Below, piece after piece: positions 3,507 to 8,230 of a stretch of DNA of 64,000 nucleotides. Numbering within the stretch: position 1 is the first letter of the stretch; every line of letters starts with the position of its first letter. Under the pieces are notes generated by a model that was not told the origin of the DNA, made no database searches, and saw only the letters and a program-made list of their open reading frames with translations. The DNA is from Clostridia bacterium (GTDB lineage: Bacteria; Bacillota; Clostridia; Monoglobales; Monoglobaceae): the NCBI GenBank assembly GCA_017456605.1, contig JAFTJA010000004.1, positions 1 to 64,000 of the forward strand. Direction: 5' to 3'. The position numbers and the translations under genes were made by a program.

Positions 3507-3635
3507 ATGGAAGAAAAAGACATTAAAAAGAATCATGACAAAAGCTCAAAGGAGCTTACTGATGCAGGCAAGATAAAGGGCAAGATTGACATTCACGATA
3601 CTCGTGAAAGAAAAGATGGCCCCGGTGGAAACTGA
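3507..3635 (+). CDS. 42-aa hydrophilic peptide ending in GPGGN
   Basis: The ATG at 3507 is preceded by AAAGGGGAGAAATAAA, a strong ribosome site, and the frame closes at 3635, 20 bp before a terminator hairpin, so it looks like a complete small gene. The product is rich in Lys, Asp and Glu, has no Cys and no hydrophobic segment, and ends DTRERKDGPGGN. I do not recognise it with certainty. Similar highly charged micropeptides with a Gly-rich tail seem familiar from Clostridia, but I cannot name a family. It sits directly upstream of the toxin array. Confidence 0.55.
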   Translation: MEEKDIKKNHDKSSKELTDAGKIKGKIDIHDTRERKDGPGGN

Positions 3636-3654
3636 TAAAGAATAAAGAAAATGC

Positions 3655-3687
3655 GGCTGTGACAAAACTTGTCACAGCTGTTTTTTG
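3655..3687 (+). terminator. Terminator after small peptide gene
   Basis: A GCTGTGAC/GTCACAGC hairpin is followed by TTTTTT. A nearly identical hairpin in the opposite sense lies at 8179-8203 and a degenerate one at 5653-5675, so copies mark both borders and one internal junction of the toxin array. Confidence 0.8.
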
Positions 3688-3768
3688 CGTTAATTGCCTT
3701 TTTAAAGTTGTTCGTTTTGTCCATTTCCCCGGGTATATAATGTAAACAAAATACCAAAGGAGGATGAT

Positions 3769-5106
3769 TTGGATTTAATGAACGAAAAGATGTTTGAGTG
3801 TATGGCAGAAAGGCTTAAGGCAGATGTTTCTAAGGAAATTGCGTATGCTTATGCCGTTTTTGTACCGGATGATGCCGAAAAAGTAATTTCTAAAATGAAA
3901 AGAAATATTCCTTTAAAAGACAGGATGTTTCTTGGTCAGGATTTGCAAAATTTTGTTGGGAGCGATTTGATTTTTCCTTATGATGTTTTAAATTCAAAGA
4001 TAGAAAAGCATATTGCAGACTTTTATGACGAGCTCAGTTTAAGCCTTGAAACCTCAAAAAAGCTTGCTACATATGGGAACAGGGGCAAAGAGTTTGAAAG
4101 ACAGTTTAATGAGAGGTTGAATCAATCAAAGGCTTCTGCAATCAGCACGGTTAAGCACGAAATGAATTTGCAAATGATGCAAAACAAGGATGCTAAATCA
4201 GCTATAGCCCAGATTCAAAAAGTGCTAACAAAACGGATAGCATCTCTAGAAAGTTTTTTAAAGTTCAGTGCTGGACAGCTGGAACAATATATGTTACTAT
4301 GGGATTATCAGGATAAGGGATATACCCATTACCGAATCAAAACGAATGGTGACAATTGTGAAAAATGTGCCAAATTGGACGGCAAGATTTTTTCTCTTGA
4401 TGAGGCAACCTCGGGTGAAAACCTTGTGCCGTTTCATCCCAATTGTGATTGCTTTGTTGAGGTGCTAGATAAAAATCAAAATAGTGCAGTTATGGTTGAA
4501 AGCACTAATGAAGATGGAGAAGGCACAAATCCTTTTGGGTATTTGCAGACTTCTTTAAAGCAGATTATTTGGGGGAATTATACAGAAGAAGTCAATTTGG
4601 GCGGTACTTTAGGGCAAATTGGGTTAGGGCTTTTTGGCGTTGATGTGCTGGCGGATTTGCGTGACATATTTTATGATATAACACATTTTGAGATGTCGAT
4701 AGGGCACGTAGTTCAGACTTTGGTGGATGTTTTTTCTGTGCTTCCTTTAGTTGGTGGTCTCAAGTATACAGATGAGGCAGGAGATGTTTTAAAGGGTGCC
4801 ATAAAGCACGGGGATGAGGCTGCGGAATTGATAAAAAACAGCAACAACTTACATAAGGCGGCAAAGCGAACCAAACCAATGACGACCAAGGAGGCTCTTG
4901 AAGCCGCAAGGAGATTAGGGTTTGAGCCTACAGGACATTTTTCTCACGGACAACCAGTATTTAAAAAAGGAAATAAATATATTACTCCAGATGTAGACAG
5001 CCATATTGGAGGAGTGTGGAAAATGGCTAATTCGATTAAAGATTTGGGAAGTAAAAAAACCAGACTAGGAACATATGATGAGACATTAAAAAGGATAGGT
5101 GATTAA
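3769..5106 (+). CDS. MuF-like polymorphic toxin, full-length
   Basis: A 445-aa protein with a TTG start 6 nt after AAAGGAGG. Domain order: residues 1-165 helical; about 166-235 a phage minor-head (MuF/SPP1 gp7)-like module with CEKC...LDGKIF...PFHPNCDC; about 250-355 a hydrophobic linker (GQIGLGLFGVDVLADLRDIF); and about 365-445 the variable toxic end, with GHFSHGQPVFKKGNKYITPD and an HIGGVWKMA segment. The end resembles a polymorphic-toxin nuclease family that I recall as Ntox21-like; the name is uncertain. The cognate immunity gene follows at once. MuF-type modules usually occur in temperate-phage toxins, but no phage genes are adjacent here. The linker is the unit repeated three more times downstream. 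Confidence 0.8.
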   Translation: MDLMNEKMFECMAERLKADVSKEIAYAYAVFVPDDAEKVISKMKRNIPLKDRMFLGQDLQNFVGSDLIFPYDVLNSKIEKHIADFYDELSLSLETSKKLATYGNRGKEFERQFNERLNQSKASAISTVKHEMNLQMMQNKDAKSAIAQIQKVLTKRIASLESFLKFSAGQLEQYMLLWDYQDKGYTHYRIKTNGDNCEKCAKLDGKIFSLDEATSGENLVPFHPNCDCFVEVLDKNQNSAVMVESTNEDGEGTNPFGYLQTSLKQIIWGNYTEEVNLGGTLGQIGLGLFGVDVLADLRDIFYDITHFEMSIGHVVQTLVDVFSVLPLVGGLKYTDEAGDVLKGAIKHGDEAAELIKNSNNLHKAAKRTKPMTTKEALEAARRLGFEPTGHFSHGQPVFKKGNKYITPDVDSHIGGVWKMANSIKDLGSKKTRLGTYDETLKRIGD

Positions 5107-5107
5107 T

Positions 5108-5602
5108 ATGAATTATTATCGCATTACAAAATACAACCCTGAATTTCGGGATAAAGAGGGACATTATACAGCAAATAGTTGGACATCAGTTAGCGATATT
5201 GGAAAAACTTTTGGCGATGGCATTCTTACTGTTGCAAAATACAAACAAACAGAAGACACTTATGTTGAAGCTGTAAAAATAATCTTGAAAGAAAAAGGCA
5301 TTTCAAAAATGACGGTTTGTGGATTAGAAAAAAACAATGATGCGAAAGAAGGCGGTTTTTCATCCAAAGAAGAGAGCTTTTTTGAAAGAGTGACCAATAA
5401 TTCTTATGTCGAATTGTTGGAAATAGAAACTGCAGTTAGATTGACTTTGCGTGAAGCGATATGGTGTAGCCTTTTATCTGATAAAGAAGATGTGAAGATT
5501 GAATTTGGTTATGATTATTATATGTATGTAAGATGTGATGCAGTGGAAGAATCTACAAAGCAAAAAATTTTAGATATGGGATCGTTTGTAGAAACAGTAT
5601 AG
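5108..5602 (+). CDS. Immunity protein for the MuF-like toxin (candidate)
   Basis: A 164-aa soluble protein starting MNYYRITKYNPEFRDKEGHY, then WTSVSDIGKTF. I chose the ATG at 5108, right after the toxin stop, over a GTG at 5099 that would overlap it. It has no signal peptide or membrane segment and is acidic, as immunity proteins often are. Assignment as the neutraliser of the upstream toxin rests on the tight coupling and position. The N-terminal YYRITKYNP pattern feels like a recurring family in toxin-immunity loci, but I cannot give its name. Confidence 0.65.
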   Translation: MNYYRITKYNPEFRDKEGHYTANSWTSVSDIGKTFGDGILTVAKYKQTEDTYVEAVKIILKEKGISKMTVCGLEKNNDAKEGGFSSKEESFFERVTNNSYVELLEIETAVRLTLREAIWCSLLSDKEDVKIEFGYDYYMYVRCDAVEESTKQKILDMGSFVETV

Positions 5603-5651
5603 TTTTTGAACGATTCTTTAGTAGAAAGTTGAACTAAAAATTAAACCAAGC

Positions 5652-5682
5652 GGCTGTGGCAAATTTTGTTACAGCTGTTTTT
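5652..5682 (+). repeat. Degenerate copy of the array-border hairpin
   Basis: GCTGTGGCAAATTTTGTTACAGC followed by TTTTT matches the hairpin at 3656-3678 with several substitutions that keep pairing. It ends the first toxin/immunity transcript and lies immediately before the first orphan cassette. Confidence 0.6.
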
Positions 5683-5684
5683 AC

Positions 5685-6575
5685 ATGGTCAAAAATAAGG
5701 TGAGCGCTGGACAGCTGGAGCAATATATGTTACTATGGGATTATCAGGATGAGGGCTATACTCATTACCGAATTAAAACGAATGGTGACAATTGTGAAGA
5801 ATGTACCAAATTGGACGGCAAGGTTTTTCCTCTTGGTGAGGCAAACATGGGCGAAAACCTTATGCCGTTTCATCCTAATTGTGACTGCTTTGTTGAGGTG
5901 CTACATAAAAATCAAAACACTGCAGTTGTGGCGTCCCCAAATACTGAATATGGAGAAGGGGCAAATCCTTTAGGGTATTTGCGGACTTCATTAAAGCAGA
6001 TTATTTTGGGTAATTATGCGGAAGATGTTAACCTGGGTGGCATTTTGGGTCAGATTGGCTTAGGACTCTTGGGCGTTGATTTGCCGGCGGATATCCGTGA
6101 CATCTTTTATGATATAACAAATTTTGAGGTGTCAACAGAGCATATAGTTCAGACTTTGATGGATGTTTTTGCTGTACTTCCTTTAATCGGCGGTCTCAAG
6201 TATACAGATGAAGGGCTGGATGTTTTAAAGAGTGCCGTAAAGCACGGGGATGAGGCAGCGGAGGCTAGCAAGATAACTAAGAGGGAACTTTTATTAGAAA
6301 GAACAACTAATCAAAAGCTTAAAAACGCTATTAACGAAATGTATAGAGAAAACGCTAAAATTGGAGATGGTGGGTTGAGTGATGCAATAAGATATGAACT
6401 CCAAACAGGGGAATTAATATCCGGAAGATCTCATATTCAAAAGGGGAAAGAACGTTTAAAGAACCTTGAGAACATTCTTGAAAAACAAGAATTGAATATA
6501 ACAGATAAAGAAACAACAATGAATTTAATTGAGGATTTAAAGAAAGCATTGGAGGGAAAGCAATATGACAAGTAA
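5685..6575 (+). CDS. Orphan toxin cassette 1 (5'-truncated)
   Basis: A 296-codon frame that begins abruptly inside the MuF-like module (homology to the full toxin from about 5701) and keeps the CEEC...HPNCDC motif and the linker. It then changes at KHGDEAAEASK to a new 90-residue end with IGDGGLSDAIRYELQTGELI and SHIQKGKERLKNLENIL. That pattern resembles C-terminal domains I recall from Rhs-type polymorphic toxins, but the family is not named with confidence. The ATG at 5685 has no ribosome site and follows a terminator-like hairpin, so it may be silent unless recombined with the full gene at 3769. It overlaps the immunity gene by 11 bases. Confidence 0.7.
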   Translation: MVKNKVSAGQLEQYMLLWDYQDEGYTHYRIKTNGDNCEECTKLDGKVFPLGEANMGENLMPFHPNCDCFVEVLHKNQNTAVVASPNTEYGEGANPLGYLRTSLKQIILGNYAEDVNLGGILGQIGLGLLGVDLPADIRDIFYDITNFEVSTEHIVQTLMDVFAVLPLIGGLKYTDEGLDVLKSAVKHGDEAAEASKITKRELLLERTTNQKLKNAINEMYRENAKIGDGGLSDAIRYELQTGELISGRSHIQKGKERLKNLENILEKQELNITDKETTMNLIEDLKKALEGKQYDK

Positions 6576-6927
6576 AGAATTAAATATGAAGCTAATAGAA
6601 TATATGCCGGAAATTAGACAAAGGTATGTTGATGAGGTGTCATGGCAGGAACAAGATGAAACAGGCTCTCATATTGTTTTTGGCGATGTTCTTGTTCCGT
6701 ATATTATAGAGAAGACGGTAATAGATGATGATCAAAGCTTAAAAAGGATTTTTGAAGCAGTAGAAAAAATTTTTAGCTTGGATGATGATTATGCCAATGA
6801 GGTTATAATATTAAGTGTCTTAGAAGCTATTTTATACAAAGAAATTTTAAATAAGAAAGTAATTAAATATATGGGACTCAATACAAAGAAAGCTTTTGAT
6901 AAAATGGAAAAGGCACGGATGCTTTAG
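6565..6927 (+). CDS. Immunity protein for orphan cassette 1 (candidate)
   Basis: A 120-aa acidic, mostly helical protein; its ATG overlaps the end of the orphan toxin and is preceded by GGAGGGAAAGC. It has no Cys motif or membrane segment. The C-terminal codons (EKARML) run into the start of the next linker copy: the DNA GAAAAGGCACGGATGCTTTAGGGTATTTG aligns with linker DNA in a different frame, so the junction between cassettes lies within the last few codons. A functional role rests on position only. Confidence 0.6.
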   Translation: MTSKELNMKLIEYMPEIRQRYVDEVSWQEQDETGSHIVFGDVLVPYIIEKTVIDDDQSLKRIFEAVEKIFSLDDDYANEVIILSVLEAILYKEILNKKVIKYMGLNTKKAFDKMEKARML

Positions 6928-7562
6928 GGTATTTGCAGACTTCTTTAAAGCAGAGTATTTGGGGGAATTATACAGAAGAAGTCAATTTGGGCGGTACTTT
7001 AGGGCAAATTGGGTTAGGGCTTTTGGGCGTTGATGTGATGGCGGATTTGCGTGACATATTTTATGATATAACACATTTTGAGATGTCGATAGGGCACGTA
7101 GTTCAGACTTTGGTGGATGTTTTTGCTGTACTTCCTTTAATCGGCGGTCTCAAGTATACAGATGAAGGATTGGATGTTTTAAAGGGTGCCGTAAAGCACG
7201 GGGATGATGCCGCAGATGCGGTGAAAAAATCAATAAATAAACTACCTTGGGATAGCTGGCAGACGTATGAAAAGGTCAATAGAAATGGTCAAGAATATGC
7301 TAAAATCGGTAATAGATTGTATTCAGAGCATGCAGTAAATAGGATGCAACCTAGCGGGAATCGATTTGGCCCTAATATTTATCAAGGGTTAAATGGTAAG
7401 GATTATGGTCGAAGCATCGCTCCGCAATATGTGGAAGAAGTTATTAATTCTACAGAGGCTGTTTTTCAGCCTGAAACAGGCAATTTTGTGCACACACTAG
7501 GAACCGTAAAAGTAATTGTTAATTCGGAAGGTGCGGTTGTAACTATAATAACATATCAATAA
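6905..7562 (+). pseudogene. Orphan toxin cassette 2 (5'-truncated)
   Basis: Linker homology starts near 6905 (equivalent to 4517 in the full gene), inside the end of the previous immunity gene. The open frame from a TTG at 6933 lacks the whole MuF-like module and any ribosome site. After the linker it carries a new end of about 110 residues: LYSEHAVNRMQPSGNRFGPN, GRSIAPQYVEEVI and a final HTLGTVKVIVNSEGAVVTI. The His-Arg-Ser/Thr scatter and the closing two beta strands recall small RNases of the BECR type found at the ends of polymorphic toxins; this is inference. It probably serves as a donor module rather than a stand-alone gene. Confidence 0.65.
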
Positions 7563-7577
7563 AAGGAGAGTTTATCA

Positions 7578-7841
7578 GTGGAAAGATTTAATGAGTTGAT
7601 TAATATCTGTGAAGAATTTATAAATGGTAAATTTGATATAGAAAAATTTCAAAATAAAATTGAAACTATTGTTTTGCCAGATAAATGTAAGAAAACATTA
7701 GAAAAGGAACAACACAATGCATGCAACAAACTTGAGGAAATAAAGTATTGTTATGCTGATTCACAAAAAGAATATGCGAATAAGGTTGCGGTTGCGCTTA
7801 TTCAGGCAACAATCAAGGAACAGGAACGCTTCAAAAAGTGA
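7578..7841 (+). CDS. Immunity protein for orphan cassette 2 (candidate)
   Basis: An 87-aa helical, charged protein with a GTG start at 7578, 8 nt after AAAAGGAG. It has no signal or membrane segment. It lies 15 bp after its toxin module, as expected for a cognate immunity protein; the family is not recognised. It is followed after 10 bp by the next linker copy. Confidence 0.6.
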   Translation: MERFNELINICEEFINGKFDIEKFQNKIETIVLPDKCKKTLEKEQHNACNKLEEIKYCYADSQKEYANKVAVALIQATIKEQERFKK

Positions 7842-7851
7842 AAGTAACTAG

Positions 7852-8178
7852 TTTGGTGTTTTGGGTCAGATTGGCTTAGGATTCTTGGGCGTTGATTTGC
7901 CGGCGGATATCCGTGACATCTTTTATGATATAACAAATTTTGAGGTGTCAACAGAGCATATAGTTCAGACTTTGTTTGATGTTTTTGCTGTACTTCCTTT
8001 AATCGGCGGTCTCAAGTATACAGATGAAGGGCTGGATGTTTTAAAGAGTGCCGTAAAGCACGGGGATGAGGCCGCAGATGTGGTTAAAGCTGATAATAAT
8101 ACAGGTATTACTGAAAAAGCAACAAAGCACGGCATCGAAAGATTGCATCAACATGGAAAAATAAAAAGTAAAGAAATA
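7852..8178 (+). pseudogene. Orphan toxin cassette 3, broken
   Basis: Linker homology starts at about 7853 (equivalent to 4604) and continues to KHGDEAADVVK. The new end begins TGITEKATKHGIERLHQHGK but is cut after about 25 residues by the border hairpin at 8179, after which the frame reads through non-coding DNA to 8280. No immunity gene follows. The HGIERLHQHG start looks like the beginning of a nuclease-type toxin domain. Most of the domain is missing, so this is a remnant. Confidence 0.7.
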
Positions 8179-8203
8179 GGCTGTGACAAAACTTGTCACA
8201 GCC
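8179..8203. terminator. Array-border hairpin, inverted copy
   Basis: GGCTGTGAC...GTCACAGCC. Read on the minus strand it has the same flank (AATGCGGCTGTGACAA) as the hairpin at 3655, so the toxin array lies between two copies in opposite orientation. It may terminate the minus-strand zinc transporter gene that ends at 8231. Confidence 0.7.
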
Positions 8204-8230
8204 GCATTTGTTTGTTGCTCCTTTTTTCAA

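What the first reader, a model, noticed from the sequence alone, without database searches (positions are those of the whole stretch)
3769..8178. Chromosomal MuF-toxin cassette array with nested 5' truncations
One full toxin is followed by three linker copies whose 5' ends lie successively further into the gene and whose C-termini are all different (Ntox21-like, IGDGG-type, BECR-like, and a broken one). Each of the first two orphan modules carries its own immunity gene. Copies have no ribosome site, so they look like stored cartridges: recombination within about 230 bp of near-identical linker could swap the live toxin's warhead. MuF toxins are usually phage-borne, yet no phage genes are adjacent. 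Such arrays are described for CDI/Rhs; a MuF-linker array outside a phage would be new to me.
Basis: partly seen in the sequence, partly recalled or inferred. Interest (0 to 1): 0.8.

Follow-up and report, generated by a model that had tools for sequence, protein, structure and literature searches.

The report
Chromosomal MuF toxin with spare warheads
A gut bacterium of an uncultured Clostridia genus carries, with no phage genes beside it, a phage-type bacterial toxin gene followed by three displaced spare toxin ends, two of them with a likely protective gene, an arrangement known from other toxin systems.

Summary
At 3769-5106 lies a full MuF-Ntox21 toxin with a candidate immunity gene, followed by three linker copies with unrelated C-termini; the first two have candidate immunity genes, the last is a stub. 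Best reading: orphan toxin/immunity modules displaced by recombination inside the pre-toxin linker, as in Rhs, CDI and MafB loci. Support: copy 3 is a mosaic of copies 1 and 2 (1 of 20000 shuffles as good); orphan 2's warhead is live in a MuF toxin of another family of the order, which has its own array; a sister MuF family keeps its backbone across species while the warhead changes. Nested truncation is not a rule; swapping within a species could not be tested. MuF toxins are described as prophage-only; here the SPP1-type portal is 174 kb away, and the strongest members of the family occur in 6 of 38 genomes, all of this genus. All nine genomes of the genus carry one conserved phage-like head-tail cassette whose slot after the portal is empty; 4 of 11 related viral contigs have a minor-capsid gene there. 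The toxins may be its trans-encoded cargo (speculative). New variant of a known kind.

The parts
3653..3685 (+). palindromic terminator-like repeat upstream of the live toxin; copies at 5650-5682 and 8177-8209
3769..5106 (+). live toxin: helical N-terminus, MuF domain (about 4225-4458), pre-toxin linker (about 4261-4838), Ntox21 warhead (4903-5103)
   Evidence: TTG start with AAAGGAGG at 3756-3763 by eye
5099..5602 (+). imm1, candidate immunity gene of Ntox21; same pair in goat-colon MAG L016 (68% aa)
5650..5682 (+). copy of the terminator-like repeat between imm1 and orphan 2
5685..6575 (+). orphan 2: linker copy (5697-6272) and warhead CT2 (6273-6572); CT2 is live in G040 (55% aa)
6565..6927 (+). 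imm2, DUF7674 immunity candidate; homologue follows CT2 in G040 (46% aa)
6923..7562 (+). orphan 3: mosaic linker (6923-7223) and warhead CT3 (7224-7559)
7578..7841 (+). imm3, candidate immunity gene of CT3 (position and size only)
   Evidence: no curated family over cut-off
7861..8182 (+). orphan 4: linker copy (7861-8082) and truncated warhead stub, no immunity gene
8177..8209 (+). terminator-like repeat, scored on both strands, closing the array

Best explanation
This is a chromosomal, stand-alone MuF polymorphic-toxin locus with a downstream array of displaced (orphan) toxin/immunity modules. The full gene encodes an N-terminal part with a MuF domain, a pre-toxin linker and a replaceable warhead, now Ntox21. 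Incoming DNA from other strains or species, carrying linker + warhead + immunity gene, recombines within the linker. The new warhead becomes the live one, and the old linker tail, warhead and immunity gene are pushed downstream without start signals. Displaced immunity genes keep their own ribosome sites and may still protect against the old warhead; displaced warheads decay (orphan 4) or can be re-joined to the head later. Shown: the copies, unrelated warheads, mosaic linker, the same warhead live elsewhere, a second array, and warhead change on a constant backbone across species. Inferred: the order of events, silence of the orphans, protection by the immunity genes, re-use within a strain.
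For: Anatomy. Mosaic: c3 matches c1 at 157/160 columns, then switches to c2/c4; 44 of 50 informative sites fit one breakpoint at 4723-4735, reached by 1 of 20000 shuffles. Warhead live elsewhere: CT2 55% and imm2 46% in G040, another family, within a complete MuF toxin that has its own array of linker copies, 474 bp at 96% and 172 bp at 97%. Sister family: L025 and L028 backbones 81% over 307 aa with different warheads; G007, whose contig-edge toxin is of the L025 type, still carries the gene that follows Ntox50 in G006 and its relative in G001, 86-90%. Apparently the same site in goat MAG L020 has a related head with a TNT warhead. CT3 recurs (43%) at the C-terminus of a protein on a Leptospira plasmid. 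Heads under constraint: dN/dS 0.17-0.19 against the two goat heads.
Against: No second strain of the species was available, so no swap within a species is seen. CT3 has no match in the other 50 genomes of the order. Live N-terminus, Ntox21 and imm1 differ from the goat copy by dS 0.99, 1.10 and 0.66, so the present live pair may be old rather than freshly swapped. The G001 and G007 toxins of the sister family are contig-edge fragments, the G001 frame also ends early, and the G000 copy starts out of frame. The genome is a draft MAG (84.67% complete), so repeats could be misassembled.
Confidence: 0.8

Rival explanations
1. Immunity shield: the modules were displaced as above, but what selection keeps is only the immunity genes, protecting against warheads of neighbours; warhead re-use is irrelevant. 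(Shares its origin with the best explanation, so the odds overlap.)
For: imm2 and imm3 have good ribosome sites, orphans do not (by eye); G007 keeps a candidate immunity gene with no cognate warhead beside it.
Against: CT2 and CT3 reading frames are still open, although a shield would not need them.
Confidence: 0.35
2. Decaying prophage debris: a phage MuF toxin region landed here and is falling apart without function.
For: Orphan 4 is a stub; MuF proteins come from phages; G005 keeps only a linker remnant at the same locus and L018 is a broken copy.
Against: The live gene is intact and its head is under purifying selection between species; strong matches occur in 6 of 9 genomes of the genus; no terminase, portal or capsid family among ten neighbours tested.
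Confidence: 0.12
3. Plain tandem duplication of one toxin gene followed by divergence of the C-termini in place.
For: Copies are in tandem, same strand.
Against: The warheads show no relation to each other in the family searches; CT2 is shared with another bacterial family; c3 is a mosaic.
Confidence: 0.03
4. Assembly artefact of a metagenome-assembled genome.
For: Draft MAG with exact repeats up to 95 nt; several relatives sit at contig ends.
Against: Exact repeats are short, every junction is different, the copies differ by 4-18%, and a second array exists in G040.
Confidence: 0.04

Closest known systems
Orphan rhs-CT/rhsI modules of Salmonella (Koskiniemi 2014, PMC3967940; passages seen)
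   Same: full gene followed by displaced fragments that keep part of the conserved region, lack start signals and carry immunity genes; fusion by recombination in 522 bp of 95% identity was reported there
   Different: delivery part is MuF, not Rhs; re-fusion not observed here
mafB-CT silent cassettes of Neisseria (Jamet 2015, PMC4287609; passages seen)
   Same: downstream warhead cassettes, some without start codon, each with an immunity gene; cassettes match live warheads of other strains
   Different: unrelated delivery domain and islands
MuF polymorphic toxins (Jamet 2017, PMC5576092; abstract, outline and passages seen)
   Same: MuF domain on the N-terminal side, variable warhead
   Different: described there as exclusively in temperate phages and prophages; the words orphan and recombination have 0 occurrences in the text; here no phage gene found beside it, and an array
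Polymorphic toxin survey (Zhang 2012, PMC3482391; passages seen)
   Same: stand-alone cassettes as toxin-immunity pairs recombining into the 3' end; Ntox21 and MuF systems listed
   Different: MuF systems there are typically marked by capsid packaging genes

Membership tests
MuF polymorphic toxins | MuF domain on the N-terminal side | tested here: met
   PF04233 over cut-off, TIGR01641 over cut-off; model of residues 1-359 (mean pLDDT 63) resembles phage minor capsid proteins, best Foldseek E 6.3e-7
MuF polymorphic toxins | variable C-terminal toxin domain on a conserved backbone | tested here: met
   Ntox21 and TNT on one family of heads, Ntox50 and another end on the sister family
MuF polymorphic toxins | adjacent immunity gene | tested here: met
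   position and co-occurrence with the warhead; function not tested
MuF polymorphic toxins | located in a prophage, near portal or terminase (a reported association) | tested here: not met
   portal 174 kb away in G000 and on other contigs in relatives (drafts); yardstick: 8 of 20 MuF-profile hits in other genera of the family lie 0.5-1.0 kb from an SPP1 portal, 12 of 20 do not
Orphan toxin/immunity arrays (Rhs/CDI/MafB type) | displaced 3' fragments that keep part of the conserved region, downstream of a full gene | tested here: met
Orphan toxin/immunity arrays (Rhs/CDI/MafB type) | no start signals on orphans, immunity genes present | tested here: met
   orphan 2 has an in-frame ATG but no ribosome site by eye; orphan 4 lacks an immunity gene
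Orphan toxin/immunity arrays (Rhs/CDI/MafB type) | orphan can become the live warhead | tested here: inconclusive
   same warhead live in another bacterial family, not seen in a strain of this species
Type VII secretion substrate (LXG/WXG) | LXG/WXG domain and EssC in the genome | tested here: not met
   no LXG or WXG family at E up to 1 on the live toxin; TIGR03928 EssC over cut-off in 0 of 9 draft genomes, weaker hits in all 9
Gene transfer agent (for the phage-like element, not the array) | conserved structural cassette under purifying selection across the group | tested here: met
   portal in 9 of 9 genomes; dN/dS 0.035-0.16 in the 23 of 32 gene comparisons where it could be computed
Gene transfer agent (for the phage-like element, not the array) | packages host DNA, does not propagate itself | not testable with these tools
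   no integrase match to two queries in the nine loci, several cut by contig ends; a relative, L143, has a recombinase-like gene

The most novel reading that the evidence does not exclude
The stand-alone MuF toxins are trans-encoded, swappable cargo of a domesticated phage-like particle. All nine genomes of the genus carry one head-tail-lysis cassette under strong purifying selection, in which the gene slot after the portal is empty. In some related viral contigs (4 of 11) that slot holds a minor-capsid (PF06152, MuF2-type) gene with its own variable C-terminus. The genus would have lost the in-cis toxin and moved the job to MuF toxins scattered on the chromosome, with orphan arrays as warhead stock.
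Probability: 0.2. Interest if true: 0.87.

Novelty: new variant of a known kind. Interest (0 to 1): 0.62.

Why it matters
MuF toxins are described as a prophage trait, thought to ride in phage heads. A chromosomal lineage of them with warhead arrays means either that they found another way out of the cell or that a resident phage-like particle serves them. Both readings make the open question of how MuF toxins are delivered testable. It also extends the orphan-module logic of Rhs, CDI and MafB to a capsid-type delivery domain.

Tried and rejected
Viral contigs with the live toxin: one pattern match, no relative. Named phages with the live head: 6 records, all under 60% identity, none covering 80% of the query. 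CT2 in named phages: none. CT3 in named phages and viral contigs: none; in 51 genomes of the order only the window itself; in plasmids 2 records. CT2 and CT3 against solved structures: 4 weak chance-like rows and none. BECR fold of CT3: single-sequence model too poor to search. PDB look with the N-terminal model: only common helical bundles among the rows listed, not used. Type VII secretion: EssC over cut-off in 0 of 9. Nestedness as a signal: rejected (1 in 6 by chance; G040 not nested). imm3 against the gene after the CT3 relative: no alignment.

Against the particle link: G040 has an array but no SPP1-type portal match; genera g5 and g8 have related portals but no MuF match; the MuF profile also missed the PF06152 genes of L147-L150, so the empty slot rests on spacing, not on that profile. 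Strong MuF toxins (E below 1e-40) fall in 6 of 38 genomes, all among the 14 with the portal, but all six are one genus, so this counts as one event. Against uniqueness: 12 of the 20 MuF-profile hits in other genera of the family are also not near an SPP1-type portal; most are weak and short, and other portal types were not searched. I also considered calling the cassette fully syntenic: four genomes (G000, G002, G006, G008) share the 3' neighbour, while G003 and G007 have it elsewhere.
Full report
Observation. The window is G000:C1:1-64000 of a 1.41-Mb draft genome, 84.67% complete. One full gene (3769-5106) is followed by three partial copies of its middle part, at 5697, about 6923 and 7861. 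The full protein has a MuF domain and an Ntox21 C-terminus; the latter matches the CdiA toxin chain 4ntq (E 2.2e-10). None of the three copies' C-termini matches a curated family over its cut-off. imm2 is DUF7674.

Recombination in the linker. Column by column, copy 3 equals copy 1 at 157 of 160 positions and then follows copies 2 and 4. Of 50 sites where copies 1 and 2 differ and copy 3 agrees with one of them, 44 fit a single switch between 4723 and 4735; 1 of 20000 shuffles did as well. Which copy is the recombinant cannot be told: copy 1 alone differs in the 3' half. Copies 1 and 2 differ by dS 0.41 with dN/dS 0.31, copies 2 and 4 by dS 0.06. The array thus mixes old and young material, as expected if modules came from different lineages.

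Same warhead, live elsewhere. A search of 51 genomes of the order with CT2 found 2, the window's own and G040, of another family. In G040 the domain is the end of a complete MuF toxin (PF04233 over cut-off), followed by a gene 46% identical to imm2. Downstream are another C-terminus without linker, a 474-bp linker copy (96%) with a further C-terminus and a small gene, and a 172-bp linker piece (97%). So MuF arrays exist in at least two families of this order, and what is orphan here is live there. The linker lengths in G040 are not nested.

Warheads change on a constant backbone. A second MuF-toxin family in the genus (22-24% identical to the window's) keeps its head and linker at 80-90% between species. 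Its end is Ntox50 in G006. G001 has a contig-edge fragment 85% identical to that one, whose frame ends early. G000, G003 and G007 share another end; the G000 copy starts out of frame and the G007 copy is cut by the contig edge. G007 retains the gene that follows the Ntox50-type toxin in G006 and G001 (86-90%), beside a toxin of the other type.

The locus. The array lies between a 5S rRNA gene (RF00001, 25-141) and two transporter-like genes (names recalled). In L041 (G008) the same 5S and transporter stretch has no MuF sequence. In L022 (G005) a linker remnant sits at this place, and in L020 a full toxin with the TNT end follows the 5S and a transporter fragment. In L040 (G002) DNA like that upstream of the array stands about 65 bp from the transporter end, but it is repeated there, so this is not a proven empty site. 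It is a variable site within the genus. Ten neighbours of toxins in six other loci, compared with NCBIfam, gave ordinary chromosomal genes, 7 of 10 over a curated cut-off.

Outside phages. Jamet 2017 reports MuF toxins exclusively in temperate phages and prophages and 96% of bacterial muf genes as prophage-associated. Here none of ten window neighbours matches a phage structural family, and no MuF hit of the genus shares a contig with the SPP1-type portal except in G000, 174 kb away; these are drafts, so contigs could adjoin. As yardstick, of 20 MuF-profile hits in other genera of the family 8 lie 0.5-1.0 kb from such a portal and 12 do not. The strongest matches (E below 1e-40) occur in 6 of 38 genomes, all in this genus. 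A search for the phrase 'MuF toxin' gave 6 papers (listing seen; two of them seen in passages), none about arrays by title. Searches with orphan, gene transfer agent and prophage remnant added gave no relevant title (of 137 papers only 15 were listed). Only openly licensed papers are held.

A possible vehicle. Each of the 9 genomes has one SPP1-like portal, 8 of 9 over cut-off. In G000 it belongs to a cassette of about 15 kb (C1:179527-194920) with terminase, portal, capsid, connector, tail, Dit, fibre-like, holin and amidase matches by PHROGs (18 ORFs tested). Terminase, portal, scaffold-like and capsid homologues are found in all eight relatives, partly cut by contig ends, with dN/dS 0.035-0.16 in 23 of 32 comparisons; the rest were saturated or partial. 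In all nine the scaffold-like gene follows within about 0.2 kb of the portal, leaving no room for a MuF gene. A profile of the MuF toxins finds nothing there either, but it also misses PF06152 genes, so the spacing is the evidence. In viral contigs with related portals, 4 of 11 (L147-L150) have a 521-567-aa gene in that slot; two were tested and both are Phage_min_cap2, PF06152 (8.8e-88, 6.5e-80), and the other two resemble them. L148 and L149 have identical portals but different ends on that gene after residue 400, so these relatives change ends too. Six of the 11 lack the slot gene, and L151 was not examined. The nearest named phage by capsid, Eggerthella phage PMBT5 (68%), also has a PF06152 gene upstream of its capsid gene. 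This suggests, but does not show, that the genus lost an in-cis minor-capsid toxin and could use MuF toxins in trans. Against it: G040 has an array without such a portal, genera g5 and g8 have related portals without MuF, and L143, a slot-less relative, has a recombinase-like gene and may be a phage. The cassette may be a stable prophage rather than a gene transfer agent.

Verdict. The array is real and is best read as orphan toxin/immunity modules of a MuF-headed polymorphic toxin outside a phage. The mechanism is known from other toxin families; its use with a MuF head on the chromosome was not found in the papers that could be searched. Delivery is the open question.

Noticed in passing
L064:11528 to L065:7017 (G000:C1:179527-194920): Compact phage-like head-tail-lysis cassette; its portal occurs once in each of 9 genomes of the genus, under purifying selection, without a MuF gene after the portal; candidate domesticated particle.
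   Followed up: partly
L148:9347-11050 and L149:3290-4855: Two viral contigs with identical portals carry PF06152-like minor-capsid genes that share residues 1-400 (89%) but end differently: exchange of ends in phages related to the cassette.
   Followed up: partly
L134:8434-12872: Second MuF toxin array in another family of the order (G040), with linker copies of 474 and 172 bp and several different C-termini.
   Followed up: yes
L121:2069-2955: Short protein with a MuF-type CxxC/HPNCRC motif fused to what looks like a barnase-like toxin, followed by a barstar-like gene (names recalled, not tested).
   Followed up: no
L117:201-761 and L118:8675-9112: Pre-toxin linker without a MuF head fused to a ParB-like C-terminus, in two genera of the family (name recalled).
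   Followed up: no
L027, L028, L026, L116 (contig ends): MuF toxins of the second family often sit at contig ends; in L028 a piece like imm2 (46%) lies just upstream of a full toxin, so further arrays may be hidden by assembly breaks.
   Followed up: no
L023:9600-11073 (G000:C7): Second MuF toxin of the window's own genome: the start lies in another frame than the rest, so it may be broken or carry a sequencing error.
   Followed up: no
window 3508-3636: Small ORF of about 42 aa upstream of the array; DNA like it (about 83%) lies beside the transporter gene in G002 and is repeated there.
   Followed up: no
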